DNA of 64,000 nucleotides from NCBI RefSeq assembly GCF_007994985.1, contig NZ_VOQF01000007.1:1-64000 (forward strand). Reading direction: 5' to 3'. The translations under genes were made by a program, and so were the position numbers. How positions within the stretch are numbered: the first letter of the stretch is position 1; each line of letters begins with the position of its first letter. The notes below the pieces were generated by a model. It had not been told where the DNA came from, did no database searches, and saw nothing but the letters and a program-made list of their open reading frames with translations. Positions 270 to 35,796 of the stretch are shown here, one piece after another. Source of the DNA: Metabacillus litoralis (GTDB taxonomy: Bacteria > Bacillota > Bacilli > Bacillales > Bacillaceae).

Positions 270-432
270 GGCTCTTTTTTTGAAGGATTGTGGCTAATAG
301 ACGTCATTATCTGTTGTAACCAGTGTTTTATCGCATAAAAGGTGCAATTTGTAAAAGAAAAAATACCACTAGACCTTATACAGAGTTGGTTCCAACATGA
401 TTATAAAAACAACAAAGTTTATGGAAACAGCC
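270..432 (-). mobile_element. Family 1 miniature element, copy 1 (163 bp)
   Basis: Non-coding element whose ends are GGCTCTTTTTT on the left and the complement of GGCTGTTTCC on the right. It is bracketed by a perfect 8-bp direct repeat, TTAAATAT, at 262-269 and 433-440. Its body matches the copies at 19780-19941 and 35636-35796 in reverse orientation, for example the shared GTTGTAACCAGTGTTTTAT and CCACTAGAC blocks. Strand is given relative to copies starting GGCTGTTTTCG. It lies just upstream of the yqfZ promoter region. Confidence 0.85.
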
Positions 433-472
433 TTAAATATTAACTCCAATTAATAAAATTCGGCTTTTCCCT

Positions 473-501
473 GACATATTTTGTTAGGACAAGCATAGAA
501 T
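473..501 (+). promoter_or_regulatory. Candidate SigE-type promoter for yqfZ
   Basis: GACATATT at 473-480, a 13-bp spacer, and CATAGAAT at 494-501 resemble the mother-cell SigE consensus (roughly kmATATT and CATACAAT). It is correctly placed before the yqfZ ribosome binding site. Inferred by eye only. Confidence 0.4.
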
Positions 502-537
502 ATAGAAGTTTATTAAAAAAAATTGGAGGAAATTATC

Positions 538-879
538 TTGAAGCGACTTTCCCTTTTATTAATTGGTCTATTTCTTTGTTATATCATCTACTATGACTTT
601 CAAATTGGTACTCTTCCTGCAGTCAGTCAAGCTGCTTCAGATAACAAAACAATTCCTGTTGTAAACCCAACATCAACATCTACAACCACTAAAATCGATT
701 ATTTTGAGCAGAAGGTCCAACAAGGTGACACAGTCTTAACAATCATTGAAAAATATCATAATATGTTGCCTGCATCTATTGAACAAATAAGTAAGGATTT
801 TGAAGAGCTTAATTCTGATACAAAAGCAAACTCAATCATAACCGGAAAAATATATCGCTTTCCAAATTATAAACAATAG
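538..879 (+). CDS. yqfZ: YqfZ-like membrane-anchored LysM-like protein
   Basis: About 113 residues. I chose the TTG at 538 because it follows GGAGGAAATTATC at good spacing; an in-frame TTG at 523 lies inside the ribosome binding site. One N-terminal hydrophobic segment (about residues 3-20) is a signal anchor. The C-terminal 50 residues contain QQGDTVLTIIEKYH and end GKIYRFPNY, a LysM-like pattern that suggests binding to cell-wall glycan. Position next to ispG matches B. subtilis yqfZ. The SigE-like promoter upstream hints at sporulation expression. Function is not established. Confidence 0.75.
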   Translation: MKRLSLLLIGLFLCYIIYYDFQIGTLPAVSQAASDNKTIPVVNPTSTSTTTKIDYFEQKVQQGDTVLTIIEKYHNMLPASIEQISKDFEELNSDTKANSIITGKIYRFPNYKQ

Positions 880-1011
880 TTGTTCCTTGTCTTTTAGTAA
901 GCCTCCCTGTAAAATGAGTTTTGGAGTACAAATTTTATAGCATGTTTAAAGTTCATTTCATTTTTGTAGTTTCAAAAAGCAATAAACTTATTTTTAAGGA
1001 GCGATTTACAC

Positions 1012-2124
1012 GTGAGTGAAATCATACATCGTACAAAAACCCGTCCAGTAAAAGTGGGAAGCTTAACAATTGGTGGAAATAATGAGGTTGTTATACAGAG
1101 TATGACAACAACAAAAACACATGATGTCGAAGCTACTGTTGCTGAAATAAACAGATTAGAAGAAGCTGGCTGCCAAATTGTTCGTGTAGCATGTCCTGAT
1201 GAACGTGCAGCAAATGCTATTGCAGATATAAAAAAACGTATTAATATTCCACTAGTGGTCGATATTCATTTTGATTATAAGCTTGCTCTAAAAGCAATCG
1301 AAGGTGGAGCAGATAAAATCAGAATTAATCCAGGTAATATTGGGAGAAAAGAAAAAGTTGAGGCAGTTGTTAAAGCTGCCAAAGAACGTAAAATTCCGAT
1401 TAGAATAGGTGTTAACGCTGGTTCACTTGAAAAAAGAATTCTAGAAAAGTATGGCTATCCAACAGCAGATGGAATGGTTGAAAGTGCACTTCATCATATA
1501 AAAATTCTAGAAGATCTAGACTTCCATGATATTATCGTTTCAATGAAAGCATCTGACGTTAATTTAGCAGTTGAAGCTTATGAAAAAGCAGCTAGAGCTT
1601 TTGATTATCCTTTACATTTAGGTATTACCGAATCAGGTACATTGTTTGCAGGTACTGTAAAAAGTGCTGCTGGAATAGGAGTTATCTTAAACAAGGGAAT
1701 TGGTAACACTTTACGTATTTCTTTAAGCGCCGATCCAGTTGAGGAAGTAAAAGTTGCTAGAGAATTATTGAAGTCCTTTGGTTTAGCAGCAAATGCGGCT
1801 ACTTTGATTTCTTGTCCTACATGTGGACGAATCGAAATTGATTTAATTAGCATTGCAAATGAGGTAGAAGAATATATTTCAAAAATTAAAGCTCCTATTA
1901 AAGTTGCTGTGTTAGGTTGTGCAGTTAATGGACCAGGAGAAGCACGTGAAGCTGACATTGGTATTGCAGGAGCACGCGGTGAAGGTCTATTATTCCGAAA
2001 AGGTCAAATCGTTCGTAAAGTACCTGAAGAAACAATGGTAGAAGAACTTAAAAAAGAAATTGATAAAATTGCTGAAGAACATTATGCAAAACAAGCAGCT
2101 GAAAAAGAAAAATTAAATTCATAA
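1012..2124 (+). CDS. ispG: 4-hydroxy-3-methylbut-2-enyl diphosphate synthase (IspG/GcpE)
   Basis: Penultimate enzyme of the MEP isoprenoid pathway. It converts methylerythritol cyclodiphosphate to HMBPP using a [4Fe-4S] cluster. The 370-residue protein starts at GTG after AAGGAGCG. It has the TIM-barrel N-terminus ([19 protein letters not shown]) and the cluster cysteines in SCPTCGR (Cys268, Cys271) and [10 protein letters not shown] (Cys303). Its product feeds IspH, encoded 8 kb to the right. It is single-gene and closed by a strong terminator. The B. subtilis homologue is yqfY. Confidence 0.97.
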
Positions 2125-2128
2125 TAAA

Positions 2129-2166
2129 AATAAGGAATCGGTTTCAACCGATTCCTTATTTTTATT
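2129..2166 (+). terminator. Intrinsic terminator of ispG
   Basis: AATAAGGAATCGG, a short TTTCAA loop, then CCGATTCCTTATT followed by TTTATTT, four bases after the ispG stop. The symmetric A/T flanks allow it to work in both directions, so it may also serve the minus-strand gene ending at 2184. Confidence 0.9.
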
Positions 2167-2183
2167 TCACTCGTTACACTACA

Positions 2184-2381
2184 CTATTCTTCTTCATGTT
2201 CCTCAGGTAGGAGAACTGCCCCAATATTACTATTCATTGATAAAGAAGTATCAATATCATCTTCTAGATGTTTCTCTCCGTAAAATTGATTTTGAATAGC
2301 CATATTTGCCTCAGTAGCTTCTTTTTCAAAAATGGTCTCATTTACTCCATTATGAGTAGCTATTGCCTTCTTGTCTTTCAT
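2184..2381 (-). CDS. Small acidic protein of unknown function
   Basis: About 65 residues. I place the start at the ATG at 2381, which follows AAGGAGGATGATTGGT at ideal distance; an ATG nine bases upstream sits on the Shine-Dalgarno itself. The protein is hydrophilic and acidic at the C-terminus (LLPEEHEEE), with no membrane segment or recognisable motif. It lies between yqfX and ispG with its own ribosome binding site behind a terminator hairpin. I do not recognise the family; the strong RBS supports it being real. Confidence 0.6.
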   Translation of the reverse strand: MKDKKAIATHNGVNETIFEKEATEANMAIQNQFYGEKHLEDDIDTSLSMNSNIGAVLLPEEHEEE

Positions 2382-2410
2382 ACCAATCATCCTCCTTTTA
2401 GGAATATACC

Positions 2411-2446
2411 AAAAATGAGGGATTGACCAGCAAATGGTCAATCCCT
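2411..2446 (-). terminator. Intrinsic terminator of yqfX
   Basis: On the minus strand AGGGATTGACCA, a TTTGC loop, and TGGTCAATCCCT are followed by CATTTTTGG. It lies 20 bases past the yqfX stop and just before the ribosome binding site of the next small gene. Confidence 0.75.
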
Positions 2447-2465
2447 TTCATTTAACCTTTACCAT

Positions 2466-2855
2466 TTAAAAGAATGGTGTGATAAAAATTCCAAGGATAA
2501 TTGATACTGCACCAATACCTATTGCCCATGCACCAGTACCAGTTGCTCCCCTTCTTCTTGCAATAAAGCCAACGATAATACCTGCTGCTCCTAAAATTAC
2601 AGGTAAAATAAATAATGAGATAATCGATAAAGCAAGAGCTAAAAAGCCCATTCCTCTACCCTCTCCTGCCACTTCATCTGCCTCTGTGTTAACATTAGCA
2701 TATTCATTTCTCATATTAATTGGAGCCGCAATTTCCGCAGCTGATTCTGTTTCATAATCAGACTCAATTTCTCGATCTAGTGGCGTAATTCCCTTGTAAT
2801 TAGGGTTATCAAAACGATCACGTTCTTGTTCATTGAACTTATTTTCGTCTGCCAT
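2466..2855 (-). CDS. yqfX: YqfX-like small membrane protein
   Basis: About 129 residues, starting at ATG 2855 after GAAAGGAAGGGATCTTA; longer in-frame starts lack a site. Residues 1-68 are soluble and acidic. Two hydrophobic segments follow (about 70-95 and 105-128), separated by the basic turn FIARRRGATGTG, an arrangement typical of DUF4190-like proteins. Position and length fit B. subtilis yqfX. No enzymatic motif is seen; the role in the membrane is unknown. Confidence 0.75.
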   Translation of the reverse strand: MADENKFNEQERDRFDNPNYKGITPLDREIESDYETESAAEIAAPINMRNEYANVNTEADEVAGEGRGMGFLALALSIISLFILPVILGAAGIIVGFIARRRGATGTGAWAIGIGAVSIILGIFITPFF

Positions 2856-3000
2856 TAAGATCCCTTCCTTTCTAATGTAAAGGAGCATTTATTATTATGA
2901 GCTATAAGTAAAGAACTATAACTGTAAAACTTTTCTGTTCGTTTAAAAAGCCATTATGGTACACTATGTACTAGGATTTAATTAAAGGAGAGACTTACTT

Positions 3001-3573
3001 ATGTTGCGACTTGGAATAGACATTGATGGGACTGTAACTGATCCACAAACTTTTGTACCTTATTTAAATAAATCATTCAATCAATCACTAACATATCATG
3101 ATTTAAAACAATATGACCTAACAAAGATCTTAAATATTACTGAAGCTGATTTTTGGAAATGGATGGATGAATTTGAACCTATAATCTACAAGGAAGCACC
3201 ACTTGCTCATCATGCTAAAATTGTATTAGATGAATGGAAAGATCAACATAAGCTTCTATTTATTAGTGCAAGGAGAAAACATTTAGAAGACATTACTTAT
3301 AATTGGTTTAAAGACAAAGATCTTTATTACCATCACATTGAATTAATCGGAACTCATAATAAGCTGGAAGCTGTTAAAAATAATAACATATCTATCTTTT
3401 TTGAAGACAAGCATGATAACGCATGTATGATTAGCGAAGAGCATAATATTCCTGTTATCTTATTTAATACACCTTACAATCAAGACCCAATTCCCAAGGA
3501 TGTTATTCGTGTTAATAACTGGTTAGAAGCGAAAAATTGGGTAAATCAATGGTATGAAGTAAAGATTTTATAA
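3001..3573 (+). CDS. yqfW: Putative 5'-nucleotidase, HAD superfamily (YqfW, NT5C type)
   Basis: The 190-residue protein opens with LGIDIDGTVTDP, the HAD motif I with nucleophile and acid/base aspartates (DxD). Later come the motif II-type serine (LLFISARR) and the motif IV-type acidic residues (FFEDKHDN). The family hydrolyses phosphate from (deoxy)nucleotides in the cytosol, though the substrate of YqfW is not established. ATG follows AAAGGAGAGACTTACTT. It stands alone, facing zur, with a shared bidirectional terminator between them. Confidence 0.85.
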   Translation: MLRLGIDIDGTVTDPQTFVPYLNKSFNQSLTYHDLKQYDLTKILNITEADFWKWMDEFEPIIYKEAPLAHHAKIVLDEWKDQHKLLFISARRKHLEDITYNWFKDKDLYYHHIELIGTHNKLEAVKNNNISIFFEDKHDNACMISEEHNIPVILFNTPYNQDPIPKDVIRVNNWLEAKNWVNQWYEVKIL

Positions 3574-3579
3574 AAGATA

Positions 3580-3610
3580 AAAGGCTCTGACATAAGTCAG
3601 AGCCCTTTTC
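3580..3610. terminator. Bidirectional terminator between yqfW and zur
   Basis: AAAAGGCTCTGAC, loop ATAA, GTCAGAGCCCTTTT: a strong stem with A-run and T-run on both sides. It serves yqfW from the left and the znuC-znuB-zur transcript from the right. Confidence 0.9.
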
Positions 3611-3633
3611 ACATTCTGTAAGACATACATATT

Positions 3634-4044
3634 TTAATGACATTGCGGACATTTACCATACACTTCGAACTTGTGTCCACTTATATCATAACCTGATAAG
3701 TTTCCTTGTAGTTGGGACATCGGACAACCAGGAATTTCTTTAGTTTTACCACATTTAAGACAAATAAAATGATGATGATGATGTTTCGAATCACAAGTAA
3801 ATCTAAAATGTTTTTCTCCGGATAATTCAGTCATTTCAAAAATGCCTAAATCAGCAAATAGAGATAAGTTTCGATAAATCGTATCAAAGCTTAATCCAGG
3901 ATAATCATCTTTTAACGATTCCAAAACATCTTTTGCTGTTAGATATTTATCAAAATCTGCAAATAACTGCAACATCTCTTCTCTTTTACTTGTATATTTA
4001 TAGCCTTTTTCTTTCAGTAAGTCGAGAGCTTCTTGAACATTCAT
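3634..4044 (-). CDS. zur: Zinc-responsive Fur-family repressor Zur
   Basis: The 136-residue Fur-family regulator has an N-terminal winged helix (residues about 15-80, with [10 protein letters not shown] recognition region). Next comes a metal/dimerisation half with the histidine run HHHHH (about 104-108). The CLKCG and CPQCH pairs form the structural zinc site. With zinc bound, Zur represses uptake genes. Its start overlaps the znuB stop by four bases (ATGA), so regulator and transporter are co-transcribed and the operon is probably autoregulated. PerR and Fur are less likely given the transporter linkage. Confidence 0.92.
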
Positions 4045-4883
4045 GAAACTTTCCCCTTTGTAAATTTAGTCCATAAAATTGTTATTACTAAGATAAATAC
4101 GGATAATATGACAATTGTTCCCCCTGGTGCTAAATCTAAATAATAGGATAGGAATAATCCAATAATAACAGATATTTCACCAAATAGTACAGAAAAGAAG
4201 ATTGTTTGCTTAAAGCCCTTTGCAATTCTAATACTAGCTGCAACCGGTAAAGTCATTAATGATGATACAAGCAAGATCCCAACAATCCTCATAGAACTAG
4301 CAATAACTAATGCTACAAGTAAGATAAAAATAAAATGAATCCACTTTGCATTTATACCTGATGCTGTAGCATGTTCTTCATCAAACGATAAAAGAAACAG
4401 CTCTTTATATAACAGGAAAATGATCGCTATAACAAAAACAGAAACAGCAATGATTACATATAAATCTGTGCGACTTACTGCACTAATGCTTCCAAATAAA
4501 TAACTAAATAAATCTGTATTAAATCCATCTGCAAGAGAAATAAAGATAACACTAATTCCTACTCCACTTGATAAAATAATTGGAATCGCTAGTTCTTGAT
4601 AATGCTTATAAACCGCTCGTAATTTTTCTACAAGTAATGAACCTACTACTGAAAAACCCATACCAAGATAAATTGGATTTAACCCTGCAAATGCTGTGAA
4701 CTTTTTTTCTAAAAGTAAACTTGCTGCAATCCCAGCTAGGGTGACATGACTTAGAGCATCAGCTATTAATGACATTCTTCTAACAACCACATAAACACCA
4801 AGAAGTGGTGCAATTAGACCTATTAATAGTCCTGACATAAATGCATTTTGTAAAAATTCATATTCAAAAAGACTGCTAAACAT
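4041..4883 (-). CDS. znuB: Zinc ABC transporter permease ZnuB
   Basis: The 280-residue ABC-3 family permease has about eight hydrophobic segments. It carries the family motif region [20 protein letters not shown] near residues 32-51, which contacts the ATPase. It forms the membrane channel for zinc (or manganese) import with the adjacent ATPase. It is second in znuC-znuB-zur, 15 bp after znuC. Substrate assignment rests on the linked zur gene. No substrate-binding lipoprotein (znuA) is present here, so it must be encoded elsewhere. Confidence 0.92.
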
Positions 4884-4898
4884 TTTTCATATCCTCCA

Positions 4899-5654
4899 TT
4901 AATGGGAGTGTGTTAACACGTGTACAGAATGGCCATAAAAATCTGACATTTCATCTTCTTTAAGTGATTCAAATTCTTCTGATTTGCCATGAAAATGAAG
5001 ATGCTTATTAATACAAGCAACATGAGTCACTTTATCTGTAATCGTTCCAACATCATGTGTAACCAAAATCAACGTTATCCCCATTTGTCTATTCAGCTTC
5101 ATTAGCATTTCATAAAAGTTTTGAACTGTTTGTGCATCCACACCTACAGTTGGTTCATCTAAAATTAATAATTTTGGCTCACTTACTATCGCTCTTGCAA
5201 TAAAGGCTCTTTGCTGCTGACCACCGGAGAGCTCTCCTATATTACGTTTTGTAAATTCCTTTAACCCAACAGCTTCAATGGCATTAAGTACTGTTTGACG
5301 ATCCTTCTTTCCCAAGAATGTAAATAAACCAAGCTTAGATGTTAATCCACTTGAAACAACCTCAAAAACTGAAGCTGGAAAACCAGTATTAAAGCTATTT
5401 GCTTTTTGTGAAACAAACCCTACTTCATGCCAGTTTTTAAATTTTTGAATTGGTTGACCAAACAGCTTGACCTCACCATTCTGTGGCTTTAATAAACCTA
5501 ATAAACATTTCAACAATGTTGTTTTTCCAGATCCATTTGGACCAACCAACCCTAAAAAGCTTCCTTGTTCTACAGTTAGATTAATATCTTCTAACACTTT
5601 TGTACGTTCATATGTGAAATTAAGATTATTTATCTCAATAACAGGTTGATTCAT
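4899..5654 (-). CDS. znuC: Zinc ABC transporter ATP-binding protein ZnuC
   Basis: The 251-residue ABC ATPase has a Walker A (GPNGSGKTT, about 39-47), signature LSGGQQQR (about 143-150), Walker B LLILDEP and the H-loop histidine in LVTHD. The C-terminus HSVHVLTHSH is histidine-rich, common in zinc importer ATPases. It energises ZnuB at the inner face of the membrane. It is the first gene of the operon. A small palindrome between gene start and promoter region may be its operator. Confidence 0.93.
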   Translation of the reverse strand: MNQPVIEINNLNFTYERTKVLEDINLTVEQGSFLGLVGPNGSGKTTLLKCLLGLLKPQNGEVKLFGQPIQKFKNWHEVGFVSQKANSFNTGFPASVFEVVSSGLTSKLGLFTFLGKKDRQTVLNAIEAVGLKEFTKRNIGELSGGQQQRAFIARAIVSEPKLLILDEPTVGVDAQTVQNFYEMLMKLNRQMGITLILVTHDVGTITDKVTHVACINKHLHFHGKSEEFESLKEDEMSDFYGHSVHVLTHSH

Positions 5655-5679
5655 TGAACTTCATCTCCTACAAATTAAG

Positions 5680-5692
5680 AATCGTTCCGATT
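5680..5692. promoter_or_regulatory. Candidate operator upstream of znuC
   Basis: AATCGTTCCGATT is a 13-bp palindrome in the znuC 5' leader, extended weakly to 17 bp. The AATCG/CGATT half-sites recall Zur boxes, but the usual Bacillus Zur box has nine bases between such half-sites and here there are three. Plausible position, imperfect match. Confidence 0.35.
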
Positions 5693-5829
5693 TAATATCT
5701 ATAAATAATATCTAACTTATAACATAAAAATTATACTCACTTCTTCAAAAAATGTAAAGAGAAAAATCGGTAAAAAAATCTGCACCTTATCAAAGAAACT
5801 TCATACATTGTGTGAGAGGAGGTTTGATA

Positions 5830-6084
5830 ATGGTGTTATTTCAAAAAATAATTAATCAGAAGCTCAACAATATATCAGTAGAGGAACTCATGCAATATGC
5901 CAAACAGTTTAATGTTTCTATAGAGAAAACTCAAGCAGCTCAAGTCGTGAAATCGATGAATGGGAAAAATATAAATATATTCAATGTTAATGAAAGAAAA
6001 CAGCTATTAACTCAAATTGCAAAGATTACATCTCCACAAACAGCTCAACAAGTTAATCAAATTTTCCAGAAGTTCACAAATTAA
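5830..6084 (+). CDS. yqfT: YqfT-like small protein (DUF2624)
   Basis: The 84-residue basic, helical protein starts at ATG 5830 after GAGGAGGTTTGATA. Glutamine- and asparagine-rich helices such as QVVKSMNGKNINIFNV and TAQQVNQIFQKF match the YqfT/DUF2624 family by length and location between nfo and the zur region. There is no membrane segment. It is transcribed divergently from znuC. The function of the family is unknown. Confidence 0.75.
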   Translation: MVLFQKIINQKLNNISVEELMQYAKQFNVSIEKTQAAQVVKSMNGKNINIFNVNERKQLLTQIAKITSPQTAQQVNQIFQKFTN

Positions 6085-6131
6085 TAAAATTAACATATTT
6101 TCCATCAACTACTTATCGTTTCATCAAAAAT

Positions 6132-6160: not shown

Positions 6161-6170
6161 TACCTTCTTA

Positions 6171-7064: not shown

Positions 7065-7081
7065 AACTCTTCCCCCTATAC

Positions 7082-13260: not shown

Positions 13261-13427
13261 AGCTCTTTTCTGTAAAGATTGCTGCTATAATAATAGCTAA
13301 AATCGTCAGTAGAAACATTGTTTTCATCACATAATAGTACCATTTATTAAAGAAGAGATGCAACAAGTATCTATAAACAGCTATTTCTACAAGTAATTAA
13401 AAAGCAACAAAGTTTGCGAAAATAGTC
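13261..13427 (-). mobile_element. Family 1 miniature element, older copy (167 bp)
   Basis: Ends AGCTCTTTTCTG on the left and the complement of GACTATTTTCGCAAACTTTG on the right match the family with a few changes. Flanks are TTTATAAG (13253-13260) and TTTATAAA (13428-13435), an 8-bp direct repeat with one mismatch. The interior is more diverged than in other copies. It fills the cccA upstream gap; I find no gene in 13069-13579. Confidence 0.7.
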
Positions 13428-13514
13428 TTTATAAACAACCTCTATTTTACTGTAATTTTATGATAAGTAAAAGACCTATCTTATAACATCTTTATGTTTT
13501 TCACACTTTAGACA

Positions 13515-19750: not shown

Positions 19751-19779
19751 CACCTTACTTTAAAAAACTTTTTTCCAAA

Positions 19780-19941
19780 GGCTGTTTTCGTAAACTTTGT
19801 TGCTTTTTGAATCCTGATGAAAACAACTTTGTATAAAGTCTAGTGGCATCTTTTCTTCTACAAATCGCCCCTTTTATGCAATAACACACTGGTTACAACA
19901 AATATTAACGATTATTAGCAACAATCTTTCAGAAAAGAGCC
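19780..19941 (+). mobile_element. Family 1 miniature element (162 bp) in the ccpN leader
   Basis: Starts GGCTGTTTTCGTAAACTTTG and ends in the complement of GGCTCTTTTCTGAAAGATTG. A perfect 8-bp target duplication, TTTCCAAA, is at 19772-19779 and 19942-19949. No open frame. It lies immediately upstream of ccpN, so transcripts entering ccpN must start inside or beyond it. The remainder of the gap to glyS (19950-20173) holds nothing recognisable. Confidence 0.9.
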
Positions 19942-20173
19942 TTTCCAAATTACATTCATAAATATAAACTTCATTTTTAATTATCATATCTGAATTATTT
20001 TCTATCTTATATTTTTTCGGGAAAATTGCAAAAGTAAGCTGATTATTAATTAATCAATTCGTCAATCGGTATTATCTGACTAAATGAATATAATCAGTTA
20101 GACAATAGGTTATACTATATAAAATTATTATATACTTTCTATGGGATTTGAAAAGCAATTTGTTTTAGCATAC

Positions 20174-20229: not shown

Positions 20230-22293
20230 TTATTTCACTAAAATTACATTCATTTTAGCAAATGACTCAATCAACTCTGAAATAGCTACCATTTGAGCTA
20301 AACGATTTTCTTTAATTTTTGCGTCCTCAGCCATGACCATCGTATGATCAAAATAATCATTAATAACTGGCTTTAAGCTGGCTAGCACTTTAAAAATTTC
20401 TTCCTCTTGACCTACTTCTTTATAACCAGCTATTTTTTCTGATGAAATATTGTACACCTCATATAGCTTTTTTTCATACTCTGATTCAAATAACAACTCA
20501 TTGATTTCTTGTGCACTACCTTTTTTAGCGATATTCATAACACGTGCTAGTGCTTCAATTGTTTCCTTAAATTCTTGTTGATCTGAAGCATGTTTTAGTA
20601 ATCTTGCACGTTCAGTTAATGACGTTACCTCAAGGTAAGATGACTCTAGAACAGCATCTATTAAATCATGGCGAATAGAATCCTCCGCTAGAAGGTATTT
20701 TAATCGTAGTTTGAAGAATGCTACCATTTCTTTTTTAGTATCTGGTGAGACTTTATCACCAAACAACTCAAGCGCTGAGCTGAATAATTGAGGAAGTTCT
20801 AGTTTATAGTTCTTTGAGCGTAATATTTGTACAATTCCGCTTGCTTGTCGTCTTAATGCATAAGGATCTTGAGAGCCTGTTGGTATTTTGCCTATCGCAA
20901 AAAACCCTGTAATTGTATCAAGTTTATCAGCTAAAGAAACAATAGCACCAATATCTGAAGAAGGTACAGCATCATCTGCATGTCTTGGCATATAATGTTC
21001 ATTTATTGCAGCAGCAACTGTTTCTTTTTCTCCAGAAATCCTAGCATATTTCTCACCAATTTTACCTTGTAGTTCAGGAAATTCATATACCATATGAGTA
21101 ACCAAGTCAAATTTACAAATAGATGCTGTACGTTTAATATCTTCTTTTCCTTCAGAATTAATTTGTAGCTGATTAGCAAGTGTTTCAGATAGCTTAACAA
21201 CACGCTTAACTTTTTCTCCTAAAGTTCCTAATTCTTCATGAAAGACAATTTTATCTAATTTCTGTACTGCATCTTCAATCTTAAGTTTTTGGTCTTCTTT
21301 GTAAAAGAAATTCGCATCAGATAATCTAGCTCGTAATACCTTTTCATTTCCTCGAGCTACATTTTCAAGATGATTATGGTCACCATTTCTCACAGTAACA
21401 AAGAAAGGCTGTAACTCACCTTCTTGATTTCTTACAGGAAAATATCTTTGATGTTCCTTCATACTAGTAACTAGAACTTCATCTGGTAATGTTAAATACT
21501 CAGATTCAAACTTTCCAAATAAAGCAGTAGGGTATTCAACTAAATTATTAACTTCTTCGAGTAAATCTTCATCGATTGGAATAATCCACTTTTGTTCAGC
21601 TTCAATTTCTGAAAGCTGAGACGTAATTGCTTGTTTACGTTTAACAGGATCAGCTAAAACAAATTGTTCTAACAAAGCTGCTTCATATAGAGACGGAGAA
21701 GCAACCTCCACTTTATTTCCTAGAAAGCGATGTCCATACGTATATGAACCTGTCTCAATACCTGCAATCTCAAATGGAATAACATCATTTCCAAATAGTG
21801 CTACAATCCATTTAATTGGTCTGATATATCGTAAATCATTGCTTCCCCATCGCATATTTTTAGGGAAAGTTAAGCCAATAATTAATTGCTTCATTTCGAT
21901 TAATAAAGTTTTCGTTTCTTGACCTTTTATATGTTTTTGGACATGTGCGTATTCTACACCATTTATTTCTTTAAAGTAAATATCCTCAACTGATGCACCT
22001 TGCCCCTTAGTAAAACCAATTGAAGCTTTAGACCAATTTCCTTCACCATCTAAAGCAATCTTTTTAGCTGGACCTTTTGCTTCCTCTTCAATATCAGGTT
22101 GCTTATCAGCCACATCTTTTATTTGGACTGCTAATCTTCTTGGTGTTGAAAATGTTTTTACTTCTCCATGAGATAGCTTTTTTTCTTCAAGCCATTTTGT
22201 TATTTTATCTTCTAACTGATTCATAGAAGGTGTGACATATTGAGCTGGTAATTCCTCTAATCCAATTTCTATTAATAAATCTTGCTTACTCAT
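20230..22293 (-). CDS. glyS: Glycyl-tRNA synthetase beta subunit
   Basis: About 687 residues from ATG 22293 after AGAAAGGAGGAGAACATA. It begins [15 protein letters not shown], has the conserved GPAKKIALD and [18 protein letters not shown] segments, an HD-like region with [10 protein letters not shown], and a C-terminal tRNA-binding helical domain. With GlyQ it forms the bacterial (alpha-beta)2 enzyme that charges tRNA-Gly. Its start overlaps the glyQ stop by eight bases. Confidence 0.97.
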
Positions 22294-23176
22294 TATGTTC
22301 TCCTCCTTTCTCATGTAACATTGGGAATCCTAATTTTTCTCTTTCGTCATAAAATGTCTTAGCTACTTTACGCGCTAAGTTTCGCACCCGTCCAATATAT
22401 CCTGTTCTCTCAGTAACAGATATAGCTCCTTTTGCATCTAAAAGATTAAAAGTATGTGAGCATTTCAGGACATAATCATATGCTGGATGTACAAGTCCCA
22501 CGTCCATTTGTCTAATAGCTTCCTTTTCATAAGTAGAAAACAACTGAAAAAGCATATCAGTATCAGATGTTTCAAATGTATATTTTGAATGCTCATATTC
22601 AGGCATTAAGAAGATATCTCTCACTGTGTAGCCTTTTGTCCATTCTAGATCAAAAACATTTTCCTTATCTTGTATATATGATGCGAGCCTTTCAATTCCA
22701 TATGTAATTTCAGCAGAAACTGGTTTACATTCCAAACCACCAACTTGTTGGAAATAAGTAAATTGTGTAATTTCCATTCCATCAAGCCATACTTCCCAAC
22801 CTAAACCTGCACAACCTAGAGAAGGATTTTCCCAGTTATCTTCTACAAAACGAATATCATGCTTTAAAGGATCAATACCTAATGCACGTAATGAATCCAA
22901 ATATAACTCTTGAATATTATCAGGGGATGGTTTCATAATCACTTGAAATTGGTGATGCTGATAAAGTCTATTAGGATTCTCTCCGTACCGGCCATCAGCA
23001 GGTCGTCTTGATGGCTCAACATAAGCAACCTTCCATGGTTCAGGTCCTATACTTTTTAAAAATGTGTATGGACTCATAGTTCCTGCACCTTTTTCTGTAT
23101 CATATGCCTGCATCAGTACACAACCTTGATCTGACCAATGCTTTTGCAACGTTAAAATCATTTCTTGAATATTCAT
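22286..23176 (-). CDS. glyQ: Glycyl-tRNA synthetase alpha subunit
   Basis: The 296-residue catalytic class II subunit has [27 protein letters not shown], the motif 2/3-type stretches [18 protein letters not shown] and [13 protein letters not shown]. It activates glycine and, with GlyS, aminoacylates tRNA-Gly. ATG follows GGAGGTGTTTTTGA. Expression is governed by the T-box leader just upstream. Confidence 0.97.
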
Positions 23177-23244: not shown

Positions 23245-23462
23245 AAAAAAACCCTCGTCCCTATGCCAAACAAATGACATAGGGACGAGAGTATACCCGC
23301 GGTTCCACCCTATTTGCTTATATAATAAGCCACTTTTAAAAAATTCCTGCTCCGGAATGCCCTTCCTTACGTGCCAATCCTTAGCTTACACCATCCTAAG
23401 GTCGCTTCCATTGGGGAACGTAAATACTTCTTTCCTTCAACGCATTATAATTCGTTTAATTA
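23245..23462 (-). promoter_or_regulatory. Glycine T-box riboswitch before glyQS
   Basis: The minus-strand leader contains the diagnostic T-box AGGGTGGAACCGCGGGT (23295-23312). A strong terminator follows (CTCGTCCCTATG..CATAGGGACGAG then a T-run at 23245-23252), with which the T-box competes as antiterminator. A GGC triplet at 23373-23375 is the candidate glycine specifier; this assignment is inference. Uncharged tRNA-Gly would stabilise the antiterminator and turn on glyQS. Confidence 0.95.
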
Positions 23463-29147: not shown

Positions 29148-29187
29148 CCTTTAAGACAAAATATGACAAAAAAAGTAGAAAAAAATG

Positions 29188-30328: not shown

Positions 30329-30331
30329 TCT

Positions 30332-31519
30332 TTAGTCTCCCTGAACAATTGGTGTAGTTTTTACAATGTTCTCCAACACTTGGTAAAGAACGGTTAATTT
30401 AACTTTACCATTCTCCTTCGTCTCGTGCAAAACTTTTTCTCCAATCACCTTTTCATCTTCCACCAAATTATCCTCAATGTCTTTACGACCTTGGTCAAGA
30501 GCTGCTTCTTTTGCTTGCTTAAGTGTATATTTTCTTTCGACCTCTTCTTTTTCAAGATAAGTTTCTTTAAGAAAACCTAATGGTAAAGAAAATCCTAGAA
30601 ACTTCAGATCGTATATATCATCTTCTAGCTCGTAGGAAGTAAATCCTGATTCACCAAATCCCCAAATCGGGAGTTGAAATGAACCGAATTTAAGGTAAAA
30701 CTTATCTTTAGTATTCCCAGTTAACACTTGAAAAGTCGTGTTTATTGGGATTGTTATTGTTGATTTATACCAGGTTTCACCGAATATCTCCGCTTTAGCG
30801 GCAACTTCCTTTTGATCATCTTCTTTCCCAATTAGACCTGAAACTAAGATTTGCCCTTTATCAACATGTTCATTTAAGGTTGTCACTGGTTGACCTTGTT
30901 CAACAAACATTTTTTTAATCACTGCTTCTTTTTTCGCAACAATATGTCGTGGACTAACAAGTTTTTCTTCTTCCGGTTGATTTTTTTCTACAACCTTCAA
31001 ATGATATGTTGTACCTGTTAGTTCTACACCAACCCAAGTGATTTGCTGAATATTATCTGTTAAGGTTTTCTGAATATCATCTGGATTTTCTACAAAAAAT
31101 TGAAACTTTCCTGATGTAACCCCAATTCTAGAAAGCTCCTTCTTAATTAAATGCTCAGTCTCAGGCGAAGCACCATCCACTTCAATTCCCCAAATCATAT
31201 TTGATAAAATAAAAATTAATACAAAGAAGGCGAGAAAACCCATAACAAATCCGTTATTGCGCCAAGAACGCTTCATTAAAAAAGGAAGTCCTAATCTTTT
31301 CTCAAATCTACACTTACACTCATTACGTCTTACTACGTCTCTTAAGGCATGTACATCTTGAAGTCGAATGAAAAAACTTAAACCATCTACTCCGCTTCTA
31401 TGTACATTCCACACAGCTATATTAGATCGTATGCAATCATTTAGAAACCTTTCAGTACCTCTTCCCTCGATACTTACTTTTAATATGCCAAATAAGTAAC
31501 TCGTCCATTGATTTTTCAT
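30332..31519 (-). CDS. yqfD: Sporulation protein YqfD
   Basis: The 395-residue protein has an N-terminal cytoplasmic domain, one transmembrane helix (about 90-112, FVMGFLAFFVLIFILSNMIW), then a large extracytoplasmic part containing VDGASPETEHLIKKEL (POTRA-like) and ending in a Lys/Glu-rich region. The YqfD family belongs to the SigE mother-cell regulon in B. subtilis. Here it is separated from yqfC by 277 bp that include a family 1 mobile element. Confidence 0.9.
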   Translation of the reverse strand: MKNQWTSYLFGILKVSIEGRGTERFLNDCIRSNIAVWNVHRSGVDGLSFFIRLQDVHALRDVVRRNECKCRFEKRLGLPFLMKRSWRNNGFVMGFLAFFVLIFILSNMIWGIEVDGASPETEHLIKKELSRIGVTSGKFQFFVENPDDIQKTLTDNIQQITWVGVELTGTTYHLKVVEKNQPEEEKLVSPRHIVAKKEAVIKKMFVEQGQPVTTLNEHVDKGQILVSGLIGKEDDQKEVAAKAEIFGETWYKSTITIPINTTFQVLTGNTKDKFYLKFGSFQLPIWGFGESGFTSYELEDDIYDLKFLGFSLPLGFLKETYLEKEEVERKYTLKQAKEAALDQGRKDIEDNLVEDEKVIGEKVLHETKENGKVKLTVLYQVLENIVKTTPIVQGD

Positions 31520-31563
31520 AATTCATCCCCCTATTAAAAAACGAATGATAGTAATGGAATGTG

Positions 31564-31589
31564 TGTCTGCTGTGAAATTTACAGCAGAC
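31564..31589. repeat. Inverted repeat in the yqfC-yqfD gap
   Basis: GTCTGCTGT, loop GAAATTT, ACAGCAGAC: a perfect 9-bp stem. There is no T-run on the minus strand, so it is not a standard terminator of yqfC. It could stabilise or process the yqfD message. Confidence 0.6.
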
Positions 31590-31612
31590 AATTTTATTCC
31601 TACCTGATGAAA

Positions 31613-31776
31613 GGCTACTTTCGCAAAAAATTGTTTATTTATAATTCATTGCTTTTTTACGTTTTAGCCTTTTGCTTTAAGCGCTTTACCTGATTATGCT
31701 TTATATAACATTTGATTCCTTTGGTAAATTCATTTCGAATTCATTCGTTAAAACAACAATTTTTGAGAAAAGAGCC
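31613..31776 (+). mobile_element. Diverged family 1 element between yqfC and yqfD (164 bp)
   Basis: Ends GGCTACTTTCGCAAAAAATT and the complement of GGCTCTTTTCTCAAAAATTG, and the length, match the family. The interior is poorly conserved and no target duplication remains (TGATGAAA versus TAGAAAAT). It ends 20 bp after the yqfC stop, so it interrupts the yqfC-yqfD transcript. Confidence 0.6.
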
Positions 31777-31796
31777 TAGAAAATTTATGGAGCACC

Positions 31797-32084
31797 TTAC
31801 GTAGCATCCAGATAGAGAACTTGATCTATCTTTCCTTCTAGTAGAATTTCTTCCGGTAGAATCGTCTTTATGACAAAGGCTTCACCTTTAATTAAAAGTT
31901 GACCTTGTTTTAACAGAAGACGTAGTTCCGTATCAGTAAACGTAAGAAGTCCTCGATGATTTTCTATGTAAATATGAATCTGTCCAACCATCGTTATTCT
32001 AGGAAGATCCATCATGACATCGGGCGGTAGTTCGATTGTGTTGGTAATCCATCTTGTTAGTTGCTGGCGCCATTTTTTTGCCAT
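31797..32084 (-). CDS. yqfC: Sporulation protein YqfC
   Basis: The 95-residue protein reads WITNTIELPPDVMMDLPRIT then repeated beta-strand segments (MVGQIHIYIENHRGLLTF), the YabP/YqfC family pattern. The paralogue YabP works in spore-coat assembly; YqfC itself is of unknown function and SigE-controlled. ATG follows AAAGGGGGTCTTTTTTT. A SigE-like promoter lies at the expected distance. Confidence 0.92.
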   Translation of the reverse strand: MAKKWRQQLTRWITNTIELPPDVMMDLPRITMVGQIHIYIENHRGLLTFTDTELRLLLKQGQLLIKGEAFVIKTILPEEILLEGKIDQVLYLDAT

Positions 32085-32108
32085 AAAAAAAGACCCCCTT
32101 TCATCTCA

Positions 32109-32138
32109 TATGTATGAGAGAAAAGTGAGTCTTATAAC
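32109..32138 (-). promoter_or_regulatory. SigE-type promoter for yqfC
   Basis: On the minus strand GTTATAAG, a 14-bp spacer and CATACATA resemble the SigE consensus. The -10 ends about 25 bases before the yqfC start. It agrees with the known mother-cell expression of yqfCD. Confidence 0.55.
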
Positions 32139-32154
32139 ATCATTATTTGAGAAG

Positions 32155-32694
32155 TTAAAAATGTCTTCTATTTCTTGTGTAATGAGGATTTTTTGCTCTT
32201 GATGGTCCGAGTACTTCACTCCAAATAACACCTTGTACTGCTTTTTGTTGATCGATTAAAAGTGTGTTCCTTTTTATATTACCTTTTATTTTAGGTGTAG
32301 TCTCTTTTACAACACTACGAACCCTTTTTGGTTCTTCCTTAATGATTTCAACATGCTCGACCTTATCAAATGATTCTACTTTCATTTTCTCATAAGCCTC
32401 TTGAACAGTTTGAAGAGAAGGCTTTTGTTCCCTTTTCCTTGTTTCAACAGTTGTCATAACAGGCTTTGGATTTGATCTTGTAGATGGTCTTGTGTTTGGC
32501 CTTGGGCTTGGATTTCGCCTTGGACTTGGGCGTGTATGATCATTTTGTCTTGGTTCAATATGTGTTGGACGTTCTGTTGGACTTTCAGGCTTCTTCTTAC
32601 TTGCATCCTCTTTTCCAGAGGTAAAGATTCTCGAAAATAACCAAGCAAGAAATGCCCATACTATTGGATTTCCAAATATATCTGATATATCCAT
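32155..32694 (-). CDS. yqfB: YqfB-like protein, third gene of the nfeD-floA operon
   Basis: The 179-residue protein has a short N-terminal hydrophobic segment (GNPIVWAFLAWLFSRIF, about 8-24) and a low-complexity Pro/Arg/Ser/Asn stretch (about 38-78) with tandem RPS/RPN units. The C-terminal motif AVQGVIWSEVLGPSRAKNP is conserved in this family. It is probably a membrane-tethered partner of FloA microdomains. This role is inferred from operon position only. Confidence 0.7.
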   Translation of the reverse strand: MDISDIFGNPIVWAFLAWLFSRIFTSGKEDASKKKPESPTERPTHIEPRQNDHTRPSPRRNPSPRPNTRPSTRSNPKPVMTTVETRKREQKPSLQTVQEAYEKMKVESFDKVEHVEIIKEEPKRVRSVVKETTPKIKGNIKRNTLLIDQQKAVQGVIWSEVLGPSRAKNPHYTRNRRHF

Positions 32695-32775
32695 TTATTT
32701 CTCCCTCCTTATAATGAGGAAAAGATGAGTTTGATGGATATCATCAAACCCACTTACTTGTTAATAGCTTAATGA

Positions 32776-33768
32776 TTAATATTCCTCGTGATCATTACTA
32801 TTTTGATTTGTTTTACCAATTGAATCTCTCATATCAGTGTCTGCTGAGATATTCTTTATGTTCATATAATCCATTACGCCAATGTTTCCAGAACGAAGCG
32901 CTTCAGCCATTGCAAGAGGTACTTTCGCTTCTGCTTCAACAACCTTCGCTTTCATTTCTTGAACACGTGCAATCATTTCTTGTTCTTGTGCTACAGCCAT
33001 TGCTCTTCTTTCTTCCGCTTTCGCTTGAGCAATTTTCTTGTCTGCTTCAGCTTGCTCTGTTTGTAGCTCAGCACCAATGTTTTTACCGATATCAACATCA
33101 GCAATATCTATCGACAGAATTTCAAATGCTGTACCAGAATCCAGCCCTTTTCCTAAAACAGTTTGAGAAATTAAATCAGGATTTTCTAATACCTTTTTAT
33201 GATTATCAGATGAACCAATAGTACTTACAATACCCTCACCAACACGCGCGATGATTGTATCTTCACCCGCACCACCAACTAGGCGTTCAATGTTTGCTCT
33301 AACTGTGATTCTAGCTTTTGCTTTTACTTCGATCCCGTCCATTGCAACACCGGCAATAAATGGTGTTTCAATTACTTTAGGATTAACACTCATTTGTACA
33401 GCTTCTAATACATCACGGCCTGCTAAATCAATAGCAGCACAGCGCTCAAACGTTAATTCAATATTTGCTCTCTCAGCAGCAATAAGTGCATTAACTACTC
33501 GGTCAACATTACCACCTGCTAGATAGTGACTTTCCAGTTGGTTAGTTGTTACATCTAACCCAGCTTTATGAGCCTTGATTAATGGGTTAACTACTCGACT
33601 CGGGATAACTCTTCGTAATCTCATCCCAATTAATGTGAAAATACTTACCTTTACTCCTGCTGCTAGTGCAGAGATCCAGAGAGCAATTGGTACAAATGTA
33701 AAGAAAACACCTAAAAAGATTAAACCTAATATAACAAGTCCTAATACTAAAATTGCTGAAGCATCCAT
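32776..33768 (-). CDS. floA: Flotillin-like protein FloA
   Basis: The 330-residue protein has an N-terminal membrane-inserted hydrophobic hairpin (about 3-40), a PHB/SPFH-like domain (about 45-220) and a coiled coil with repeated [16 protein letters not shown] heptads (about 235-290). FloA organises functional membrane microdomains and affects fluidity and signalling. It follows the NfeD-type protease gene by 73 bp. The B. subtilis homologue is yqfA. Confidence 0.95.
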
Positions 33769-33841
33769 TGTTTTCCTCCTAATAAAAATGATAAGCCTGA
33801 CATGTAAGAAGTAATAACCTCTTTAATTGTTGAACTAACCT

Positions 33842-35158
33842 CTATAATTCTCTCACAACAATACGTGAGCCTTCAACCTTCACTACCTTTACTTTTTGTC
33901 CTTTATTAATATAACTACCTTCAGTTACAACATCCAAGCGTTCATCACCTATTATTGCAGTACCTGCTGGTCTCAGTGTGGTCAATGCAACACCTTCGAC
34001 ATTTATTAATTCGTTTCTCGTTTTACTTGAAACATAGCCACTTTCAGTATTTGTTGAGTCACGCAAAATTAATCGTTTAAAAATATTCATACGTTTTCCA
34101 AACACCTTTACTAATAAGATAGAAACAAGAACGGACACAGCAAAAGCAATCAATAGTGAGATCGTCATTTGTATGAAATTACCTGAAGCGATGTAAAGAC
34201 TTCCGATCACGCTTGCAAAGCCCAATATCCCCATTATACCACCCGGTACAAATAATTCAGCTATTATTAAGATGATTCCTAAAATAAATAGGAGTAGAGA
34301 CTCTAGTCCCGCAAGTCCTGCCACTAAATGTCCATAGAAAAATAGTAATAAAGATGCTAAACCCATAAAACCTGGAATTCCAAAACCAGGTGAATAAAGC
34401 TCGACAACAAGTCCTATACTTCCAATTGAAAGTAAAATTGGAACAACAACTGGATTTGTAATAAATCTTGCTACTTTCTCAGCAAAACTTTCCTCAGCCT
34501 CTAATATTGTTGCATTGGATAAATTCAGCTGATTTAATAAATCCTTTCTGCCCTCTGCAACTCCTTCAGCATATCCAACCTGTACTGCTTGCTTCGTTTC
34601 TAAAGTTAATAAATCACCTTTGCCAGCACCAAACTCAGGAACATCAACATCTTTATCAACCATTGCTAATGCATATTTAGGATCACGACCATTTCGTTCT
34701 GCTGATTCTCTCATTTCAGATAACCATAATGATTGCGCTTTATCATCAGCGGCGTTACCATCACCAGTAATAACAGCTGCAGATCCCATTTGACTACCTG
34801 GAACCATATAGATTTGGTCTGCATTTAATGCAATATAAGCTCCTGCAGAAATTGCTCTTCTGTTTATAAAAGCTGTTATTGGGATATCACTTGATCTCAA
34901 GGTATCCGCAATCTCCATTGCACCATCTACTGCACCGCCTAGTGTATCAATCTCAAGGATTATATGGTCAACACCCTGTTCTTTAGCATCAGTAATATTT
35001 CGTTCAATATATTGCGAAAGTCCCTTTTCAACTGTGTCTTCTAAAGGAATAATATACACTTTTTGATTTGAATCAGCTTTTAATTCATTATTAAAACCAG
35101 TAAAAACACTTAAAACCAGACCCATAATAATCATGAGCAAGAAAAAATACTTTCTCAT
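33842..35158 (-). CDS. yqeZ: NfeD-family membrane-bound serine protease (YqeZ)
   Basis: The 438-residue protein has a signal peptide (about 1-28) and a ClpP-like protease domain with IDTLGGAVDGA and the catalytic serine region RAISAGAYIALNAD. Four to five membrane helices (about 235-350) and a C-terminal OB-fold NfeD domain (GVALTTLRPAGTAIIGDERLDV) follow. It works with flotillin partners encoded downstream. ATG follows AGGAAGGAGG. A SigW-type promoter is directly upstream. Confidence 0.95.
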   Translation of the reverse strand: MRKYFFLLMIIMGLVLSVFTGFNNELKADSNQKVYIIPLEDTVEKGLSQYIERNITDAKEQGVDHIILEIDTLGGAVDGAMEIADTLRSSDIPITAFINRRAISAGAYIALNADQIYMVPGSQMGSAAVITGDGNAADDKAQSLWLSEMRESAERNGRDPKYALAMVDKDVDVPEFGAGKGDLLTLETKQAVQVGYAEGVAEGRKDLLNQLNLSNATILEAEESFAEKVARFITNPVVVPILLSIGSIGLVVELYSPGFGIPGFMGLASLLLFFYGHLVAGLAGLESLLLFILGIILIIAELFVPGGIMGILGFASVIGSLYIASGNFIQMTISLLIAFAVSVLVSILLVKVFGKRMNIFKRLILRDSTNTESGYVSSKTRNELINVEGVALTTLRPAGTAIIGDERLDVVTEGSYINKGQKVKVVKVEGSRIVVREL

Positions 35159-35189
35159 CGTTTACCTCCTTCCTAATCTGCATAATCTT

Positions 35190-35218
35190 AATACGTATAT
35201 GATACCTAATTAGTTTCA
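35190..35218 (-). promoter_or_regulatory. SigW-type ECF promoter of yqeZ-floA-yqfB
   Basis: On the minus strand TGAAAC, a 17-bp spacer, CGTATT, 30-odd bases upstream of the yqeZ start. Both elements match the SigW consensus (TGAAAC, CGTA) known for this operon in B. subtilis, so envelope-stress control is likely. Confidence 0.85.
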
Positions 35219-35351
35219 TACTTTTATTATTAATTTTATTTACAAGAGCTATTCTCATAAACATTAGGGTTTAAAATTCTAAAGGATACAGCACCATATC
35301 GAATATAGCGGAAGAATCTTTTCTACAAGAAAACGTACCTTCTAAAAATAA

Positions 35352-35429
35352 GGTGCATAAACATTGTTAATGATTTTCGTTAAAGGCATTCAACTAAGTG
35401 CGATAACTCAACATTAAGCTATCATAGCC
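35352..35429 (+). mobile_element. Internally deleted remnant of the 265-bp family 2 element (78 bp)
   Basis: Left part TAAACATTGTTAATGATTTT and CGTTAAAGGCATTC follow the start of the 45784 copy. The right part AAGTGCGATAACTCAACATTAAG then ends ATAGCC like its terminus. About 190 internal bases are absent and no target duplication is left. The surrounding 35219-35635 has no gene. Confidence 0.55.
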
Positions 35430-35635
35430 TAAGCTAAGAACTCTAACAAATAACCTTCCTAGTATTTACTTTGTTTTAAAATTCAAGTCTCACTATGTAA
35501 GAAAAAATCAAGCGCCTTTGTTGGCTTAGGGAGATAATCTAACGTTTGATAGACAATAAGCATTAGATTTTCTTCAATGCTAAGACCAACACAAAAACTA
35601 AATACAAGTTTTATTCTTATTTAGTCATAATAAAA

Positions 35636-35796
35636 GGCTGTTTTTGCAAACTTATACTTATAAATACCCAAAGAAATCAGCATTGTAATAAGTCTAGTGG
35701 CATCTTTTCTTCATAAAATAGTAGGCTTATATGCGAAAACACACTGGTTCTCCTGCATATTTTGGTTACATAGCAACAATCTTTCAGAAAAGAGCC
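35636..35796 (+). mobile_element. Family 1 miniature element at the yqeY terminator (161 bp)
   Basis: Begins GGCTGTTTTTGCAAACTTAT and ends in the complement of GGCTCTTTTCTGAAAGATTG. A perfect 8-bp direct repeat, TAATAAAA, is at 35628-35635 and 35797-35804. The right duplication is part of the T-run of the yqeY terminator. Contains the shared AAGTCTAGTGGCATCTTTTC block. Confidence 0.9.

What the first reader, a model, noticed from the sequence alone, without database searches (positions are those of the whole stretch)
270..35796. A family of about 162-bp non-coding mobile elements with 8-bp target duplications
Copies at 270-432, 13261-13427, 19780-19941, 31613-31776 and 35636-35796 share ends (GGCTGTTTTCG... 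and GGCTCTTTTCTG...) and length 161-167. Three have perfect 8-bp direct repeats (TTAAATAT, TTTCCAAA, TAATAAAA) and one has 7 of 8. Five copies in one 36-kb core region implies a high genomic load. No transposase or coding frame is inside, so these behave as MITEs.
Basis: partly seen in the sequence, partly recalled or inferred. Interest (0 to 1): 0.72.

Follow-up and report, generated by a model that had tools for sequence, protein, structure and literature searches.

The report
Orphaned IS1595-type miniature transposons in Metabacillus
The five short repeats are real miniature transposons, present in roughly a hundred copies in this bacterium; they carry the end signals of a known transposase family (IS1595), of whose matching enzyme only a broken remnant was found in the host, and they share an unexplained, strongly conserved stretch in their middle.

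Summary
Five 161-167 bp copies lie at the stated coordinates; three have perfect 8-bp target duplications, one has 7 of 8, the old copy 31613 has none. The genome (a Metabacillus) carries 102+109 matching ends (control 0), about 100 copies. Of 39 full-length copies tested, 30 have repeats of at least 7 of 8 (offset control 0 of 156). A sister species lacks three of the five window copies and has a single 8-bp target at each place; a third species lacks a fourth. So they are mobile, and three probably moved after the sister split.

New: the ends belong to one clade of IS1595-family elements found in many Bacillales genera: 1.4-2.3 kb, a transposase, usually a convergent passenger frame, 8-bp duplications. 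The host shows only a truncated relic of that transposase; two single-contig relatives have 151 and 165 ends and no detectable one. Homology with the full elements stops near the ends. Inside, a 32-bp core is about as conserved as the ends in four species; its role is unknown. Other genomes use the same ends around other interiors. Verdict: a well-supported MITE family, a new member of a known kind, with an unexplained core.

The parts
270..432 (-). MITE copy (163 bp)
   Evidence: TSD TTAAATAT 8/8; empty in sister G011 with one, slightly changed, target
262..269 (.). target duplication TTAAATAT (second copy at 433-440)
13261..13427 (-). MITE copy (167 bp), older
   Evidence: TSD 7/8; present in G011 (95.8% identical), empty in G003 with one TTTATAAA
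13253..13260 (.). target duplication TTTATAAG (other side 13428-13435 TTTATAAA)
19780..19941 (+). MITE copy (162 bp)
   Evidence: TSD TTTCCAAA 8/8; empty in G011 with one, slightly changed, target
19772..19779 (.). target duplication TTTCCAAA (second copy at 19942-19949)
19831..19858 (+). conserved internal core, exact match to GTATAAAGTCTAGTGGCATCTTTTCTTC
31613..31776 (+). old MITE copy (164 bp), diverged, no target duplication left
   Evidence: Present in G011 (89%); in G003 a younger copy appears to sit inside the end of an element at this place
35636..35796 (+). MITE copy (161 bp)
   Evidence: TSD TAATAAAA 8/8; empty in G011 with one TAATAAAA
35628..35635 (.). target duplication TAATAAAA (second copy at 35797-35804)
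35685..35712 (+). conserved internal core, 2 mismatches
35247..35340 (+). decayed partial copy
   Evidence: profile match 2-97, 23.8 bits, shared with G011
49226..49340 (-). decayed partial copy
   Evidence: profile match 16-154, 23.5 bits, shared with G011

Best explanation
These are non-autonomous miniature transposons (MITEs). An IS1595-family transposase acting in trans recognises their two slightly different ends (GGCTGTTTTCGTAAACTTTGTTG and GGCTCTTTTCTGAAAGATTGTTG), moves the ~162-bp unit into AT-rich intergenic DNA and makes an 8-bp target duplication. Shown by sequence: insertion (empty sites, duplications) and the family of the ends. Inferred: that the IS1595 clade identified here supplied the enzyme. 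In the host only a truncated relic of that transposase was found, so its copies are probably immobile unless a partner arrives, for example on a plasmid.
For: Copies and duplications. Empty sites: copies 270, 19780 and 35636 are absent from sister G011 (projected junction -8 bp at each), copy 13261 absent from G003. Same kind of ends on full IS1595 elements: a Niallia plasmid element, 1765 bp, target repeat TTTTTAAA; two copies of a 1698-bp element in same-genus G001 (TTTAAAAA, TTTACATA); and 41 of 67 examined loci from named genomes (43 were resolved under the requirement of at least 7 of 8 repeat and 13 of 22 end matches; 41 of the 43 had 8/8; L212 and L248 of the 43 have other ends). Transposase is IS1595: NF033547 E 4e-61 and 8e-64, PF12762 1.3e-14. 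On a transposase tree of 42 rows, the 37 rows with TTTTC-type ends and L212 are together (support 100), the 3 rows with GGCTnTGTTAAA ends apart from them. Relic of the transposase C-terminus in the host, 59% over residues 235-334, with one matching end about 0.6 kb away. 12 of 12 full-length copies on the contig lie outside gene models that cover 0.82 of it.
Against: No transposition was observed. No intact partner was found in this genome or in sister G011, so the enzyme that moved the recent copies is not identified; in the 75-contig draft one could be missing. Similarity to the full elements stops near the ends: inner parts score no better than shuffles, so descent by internal deletion is not shown. 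Which MITE end corresponds to which element end is only a tendency: of 41 elements, 24 fit left = downstream and right = upstream, 11 fit the reverse, 6 tie. The end search was seeded with GGCTnTTTT and favours that class; 24 of 67 loci stayed unresolved. The conserved core is not expected of a purely end-driven passenger.
Confidence: 0.9

Rival explanations
1. ISL3- or IS6-family MITEs: both families also make 8-bp duplications and have GG-starting ends (recalled), so the partner could be one of them.
For: 8-bp duplication and GG ends fit, by recall only.
Against: No ISL3 transposase found in this genome; ISL3 matches in 3 of 21 same-genus genomes. For 3 of those 8 loci a brute search for end pairs gave only candidates unlike the MITE ends (L127, L128) or none (L129). 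IS1595 elements with the MITE type of ends were found directly. IS6 was not searched.
Confidence: 0.03
2. Host structured RNA, terminator or regulatory repeat that spread by another route, the end symmetry being an RNA stem.
For: The ends pair in a fold; z -2.52 and -1.81 on the two strands of copy 19780. A core of 32 bp is about as conserved as the ends.
Against: Around copy 19780 no Rfam match at E up to 1 and no terminator-like or promoter-like site; target duplications and empty sites show insertion; ends of the same kind flank transposase genes.
Confidence: 0.04
3. In addition to being a MITE, the element keeps its core (GTATAAAGTCTAGTGGCATCTTTTCTTC) by selection, because it helps transposition (enhancer, second enzyme site or host-factor site) or acts as RNA.
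For: The most frequent exact 16-mer in 39 copies lies in the core (24 of 39), ahead of any in the ends (17); identity to consensus in 9 copies of G014 is 0.87 for the core, 0.87 and 0.89 for the ends, 0.44-0.64 for the spacers. Found at up to 3 mismatches 89 times here and in 5 of 60 genomes in all, all of this genus, control 0.
Against: Not found in 98 IS1595-related loci nor in 15 loci of other genomes' elements with the same ends, so it is not generally required. In G011 the core (0.81) is less conserved than the ends (0.86, 0.92). Shared descent of a subfamily could mimic constraint in part. The G014 and G020 copies were found with a whole-copy query and 9 of 14 fetched G014 places were resolved, so they may be biased to matching parts. 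No promoter call.
Confidence: 0.35

Closest known systems
IS1595 family of insertion sequences (ISPna2, ISH4, IS1016, IS1595, ISSod11, ISNwi1, ISNha5 groups)
   Same: 8-bp target duplication and GG-starting ends; the full elements with these ends have the IS1595 catalytic and zinc-binding domains. That the family can carry passenger genes is recalled.
   Different: The window copies encode nothing and share only about the terminal 30-60 bp with the full elements.
Prokaryotic MITEs in general
   Same: Short, no gene, inverted ends, target duplications, high copy number, intergenic.
   Different: No intact partner found in the host; a conserved core. I saw no IS1595-linked MITE in the listings; the review PMC10969869 does not hold the word IS1595 in its main text (word search).
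Mobile insertion cassettes (MIC231) of Bacillus cereus
   Same: Ends of an insertion sequence moving other contents without a transposase of their own (existence: passage of PMC3281130; details recalled).
   Different: MICs use IS231/IS4-type ends and carry genes (recalled); these carry none and use IS1595-type ends.
Eukaryotic Merlin transposons
   Same: Related transposase, 8-9 bp duplications, GG ends (passages of PMC8101967).
   Different: Eukaryotic; not compared here by sequence.

Membership tests
MITE | Short non-coding unit with terminal inverted repeats | tested here: met
   161-167 bp, ends about 23 bp; no open frame of 80 aa or more inside
MITE | Target-site duplication and empty sites | tested here: met
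   30 of 39 copies with at least 7 of 8, control 0 of 156; 4 of 5 window copies have an empty site in a relative
MITE | High copy number | tested here: met
   102+109 ends, control 0
MITE | Ends match an autonomous element that can act in trans | tested here: met
   IS1595 clade in relatives and other genera; intact partner in the same genome not found, relic only; action in trans itself not testable here
MITE | Derived by internal deletion of that element | tested here: inconclusive
   Inner parts no more similar to the elements than shuffles
IS1595 family (for the full elements) | DDE_Tnp_IS1595 domain | tested here: met
   PF12762 1.3e-14; NF033547 4e-61 and 8e-64; two transposases tested
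IS1595 family (for the full elements) | N-terminal zinc-binding domain | tested here: met
   NF050000 about 1e-13, over cut-off; PF12760 below its cut-off
IS1595 family (for the full elements) | 8-bp target duplication | tested here: met
   8/8 in 41 of 43 resolved elements, but at least 7/8 was required for resolving; 24 of 67 not resolved
IS1595 family (for the full elements) | Named ISfinder subgroup | not tested
   ISfinder is not at hand
ISL3 family | DDE_Tnp_ISL3 transposase with these ends | tested here: not met
   none found in this genome; 3 of 8 same-genus loci examined, no like ends

The most novel reading that the evidence does not exclude
One kind of IS1595 end works as common currency in Bacillales: it brackets a transposase plus an exchangeable gene, or quite different non-coding interiors, in many genera, and host genomes keep large loads after losing the transposase. 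In Metabacillus one interior holds a 32-bp core under selection nearly as strong as that on the ends, i.e. an undescribed cis element for transposition or for the host.
Probability: 0.3. Interest if true: 0.62.

Novelty: new member of a known kind. Interest (0 to 1): 0.45.

Why it matters
It ties an anonymous repeat to a specific transposase clade, so movement can be tested directly. It gives clean cases of MITE loads (about 75-83 copies, taking two ends a copy, in two single-contig genomes) with no detectable transposase, useful for asking how such loads arise and whether incoming plasmids re-start them. The conserved core is a concrete, testable anomaly. The full elements of this clade appear to carry single genes between Bacillales genera.

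Tried and rejected
ISL3 partner: searched first because of end and duplication resemblance (recalled); none found in the genome, and 3 of the 8 same-genus ISL3 loci examined show no like ends. Host RNA or terminator: Rfam at gathering scores over the window gives only a T-box elsewhere; around copy 19780 Rfam, promoter and terminator scans are empty; folds are only moderately stable. Core as the vestige of the transposase start: the reverse strand of the core reads GAAGAAAAGATGCCACTAGAC, 92 bases from the end against mostly 78-90 in the elements, but alignment with the element upstream regions is no better than shuffles, so not claimed. MITE interior as a deleted element: same test, not supported. 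A fixed correspondence of the two MITE ends with the two element ends: in the 40 best profile matches the left end fits downstream ends only, but the right end fits both, and over 41 elements it is 24 for, 11 against, 6 ties; so only a tendency. Defence function of passengers: 10 against PADLOC, 0 matches. (a viral-contig scan with the window's DnaK, meant to help name the organism) was ill chosen; its 76 loci were not analysed. Literature: searches by family (8 papers, of which I read passages of three and saw the rest as listing), by six short end or repeat strings (one unrelated paper) and by MITE in Bacillaceae (four papers as listing) showed no description of these elements; most subscription journals are not in that library.
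Full report
What was checked. Three have perfect 8-bp direct repeats, 13261 has 7 of 8, 31613 has none. No open frame of 80 aa or more lies inside. The window is the first 64 kb of a 418-kb contig of a 4.88-Mb, 75-contig genome.

Copy number. A single-copy query scored 40 of 231 first-look candidates in the own genome and returned 40 places (the query itself, the rest 77-89% identical, one of them partial) plus one 25-base piece. The 23-bp end pattern gives 114+130 places at up to 3 mismatches against 2+0 for the reversed control and 102+109 against 0+0 at up to 2, i.e. about 100-120 copies at two ends a copy. On the 418-kb contig a profile finds 12 full-length copies, so five in 36 kb is a local cluster.

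Mobility. For 39 full-length copies of this genome, flanking 8-mers match 8/8 in 22, 7/8 in 8, 6/8 in 5, 4/8 in 3 and 3/8 in 1; offset controls reach 7 or more in 0 of 156. These 39 are the best BLAST hits plus the contig's copies; partial or low-scoring matches (copy 31613 among them) did not enter. For sister G011, one contig taken whole, 8 of 17 have at least 7, control 0 of 68. G011 (rpoD 98% identical) lacks copies 270, 19780 and 35636; the flanks meet there with a projected overlap of 8 bp, the target being unchanged at 35636 and slightly changed at the other two. Copy 13261 is present in G011 but absent from G003 (rpoD 90%), where one TTTATAAA is left. Copy 31613 is in G011; in G003 the corresponding place reads as a younger copy inserted into the end of an older element. 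In the 66 kb compared, three full copies are private to this genome, two are shared and none was private to G011. So three of five window insertions probably postdate the split. All 12 full-length copies on the contig lie outside gene models (greedy open frames of at least 90 aa) that cover 0.82 of it; in G011 14 of the 16 given (of 17) do.

The enzyme family. A search with one end in plasmids (27 records) led to an annotated IS1595 transposase on a Niallia plasmid. That element runs 1765 bp with target repeat TTTTTAAA and carries a DinB/MST-type gene. Same-genus G001 has two copies of a 1698-bp element with repeats TTTAAAAA and TTTACATA. A scan of named genomes kept 80 transposase loci of 316 relatives; I entered 67 of the 80 into the end analysis. 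43 were resolved under the requirement of at least 7 of 8 repeat and 13 of 22 end matches; 41 of these have 8/8, and 41 have TTTTC-type ends (L212 and L248 do not); 24 were not resolved. They lie in Metabacillus, Peribacillus, Neobacillus, Niallia, Priestia, Sporosarcina, Paenibacillus and others, 1358-2289 bp. In 41 of 43 an open frame of at least 60 aa lies between transposase and downstream end, in 35 of 41 convergent to it; the shorter frames may be chance. Of 22 passenger frames scanned (mostly the longer ones), 13 hit a Pfam family above its cut-off: phosphoesterase, GNAT acetyltransferases (3), HAD hydrolase, DinB/MST, nucleotidyltransferase, S51 peptidase, CAAX-type protease, SAP/DUF6434, DUF3221, DUF6882, SMI1 (the SMI1 one is in L248, of the other end class; the nucleotidyltransferase and protease are in elements with 7/8 repeats and a truncated or interrupted transposase). 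The transposases are IS1595 by NCBIfam and Pfam. A quick tree of 42 proteins (6 of 48 rows dropped for stops or length) puts the 37 rows with TTTTC-type ends and L212 together with support 100 and the three with GGCTnTGTTAAA ends, and one row without resolved ends, apart; the program warns of long branches, and the end search favoured the first class.

End correspondence and interior. Profile matches between MITE and elements cover about the terminal 30-60 bp only. Among the 40 best, the MITE left end fits downstream ends only, the right end fits both upstream and downstream ends. Over 41 elements, 24 fit left = downstream and right = upstream, 11 the reverse, 6 tie: a tendency, no rule. Beyond the ends, MITE and element sequences align no better than shuffles. 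Thus the ends are shared; the origin of the interior is not known.

Orphan load. The own genome has a different-clade IS1595 fragment (L142) and one relic of the right clade, 59% identical over residues 235-334, with one matching end about 0.6 kb away and a small convergent frame between; the N-terminal half was not found and the element's other end was not resolved. In the 60-genome comparison 48 of 60 have at least one end; twelve have over 100: G003 420, G059 301, G012 299, this genome 211, G018 178, G033 178, G013 165, G020 161, G054 153, G008 151, G011 137, G045 106; the control found 1 site in all 60. The transposase query found matches in 30 of 60. In none of those twelve is there a full-length match of 55% identity or more (my cut); five of them (G008, G011, G012, G013, G045) have no match at all, the others fragments or, in G003 and G033, full frames at 41-44% that look like other clades. 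Genomes with full-length matches at or above the cut, such as G001, G022, G029 and G040, have 3-9 ends. G008 and G013 are single contigs, so assembly loss is not a likely reason there; for the own draft genome it cannot be excluded.

The core. Consensus positions 49-80 are about as conserved as the ends. Identity to consensus, core / ends / spacers: own 39 copies 0.90 / 0.92, 0.93 / 0.75-0.80; G011 17 copies 0.81 / 0.86, 0.92 / 0.57-0.69; G014 9 copies 0.87 / 0.87, 0.89 / 0.44-0.64; G020 5 copies 0.94 / 0.94, 0.97 / 0.66-0.79 (of 20 places fetched, 9 of 14 of G014, 5 of 5 of G020 and 0 of 1 of G059 could be resolved). The most frequent exact 16-mer in own copies is in the core (24 of 39); the best in the ends has 17 of 39. 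At up to 3 mismatches the core occurs 89 times here, 172 in G003, 44 in G011, 42 in G020, 6 in G014, in 0 of the other 55 genomes, control 0. It was not found in 98 IS1595-related loci and 15 loci of other genomes' elements. Around copy 19780 no Rfam family, promoter or terminator was found. I cannot say what it does; selection for transposition or a host role is the bold reading, lineage history the dull one.

Other interiors. Elements with the same ends in G012, G013, G017, G018 and G054 are 185-321 bp with other, GC-rich interiors and 7/8 or 8/8 repeats; those of G045 and G059 (163, 164 bp) have yet other interiors and only 5/8. In the stretches, 2 of 27 sites of that GC-rich motif lie inside end pairs, with 8/8 repeats in G008 and G013; the rest stand alone.

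Target preference. Three nested insertions in G003 hit the same place in another copy's right end, TTTCTGAA or its variant TTTCTAAA (86 end pairs examined, some overlapping, and weaker end-like flanks are also listed there), and one pair stands head to tail with a shared 8-mer.

Literature. The IS1595 definition used here (8-bp repeats, zinc-binding domain except in the IS1016 group, DDE domain) was read in passages of PMC8101967. PMC3852290 (passages) gives the general definition of MITEs. The main text of the prokaryotic MITE review PMC10969869 does not contain the words IS1595 or Bacillus (word search only). Searches for IS1595 with miniature elements, for the end sequences and for MITEs in Bacillaceae showed no description of these elements; of the papers I read passages of PMC3852290, PMC12888890 and PMC3281130 and saw the others as listing only. 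Siguier et al. 2009 was seen only as a reference.

Verdict. It is a new member of a known kind; the core and the differing interiors are the parts worth a specialist's time.

Noticed in passing
L356 (G003:C5:106801-107400), L357, L358: Head-to-tail pair of copies sharing one 8-mer, and nested insertions that hit the same 8-mer (TTTCTGAA or variant) inside another copy's right end.
   Followed up: partly
L137:4001-5765; L139:988-2685; resolved loci among L175-L246: IS1595-clade elements with one, usually convergent, differing passenger frame in many Bacillales genera.
   Followed up: partly
L036, L038, L039, L040, L043; G008 and G013 stretches (L171, L173): A GC-rich repeat (CTTTCCGCGGGG...) that stands alone in many places also occurs as the interior of elements with IS1595-type ends and target duplications.
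   Followed up: partly
L321:3894-4981: Truncated IS1595 transposase relic of the matching clade in the own genome, its C-terminal part continuing an unrelated open frame.
   Followed up: partly
L186 (JAGGRA010000077.1, titled Pseudomonas sp. ISL-84): Element like those of Bacillales in a record titled Pseudomonas; that genome's rpoD is 76% identical to the window's over most of its length, so the record may be mislabelled or contaminated.
   Followed up: no
window 23278-23449 (-): T-box leader (Rfam RF00230, 104.6 bits), upstream of the frame at 22286-23176 (-), which looks like the glycyl-tRNA synthetase alpha chain (name recalled).
   Followed up: no
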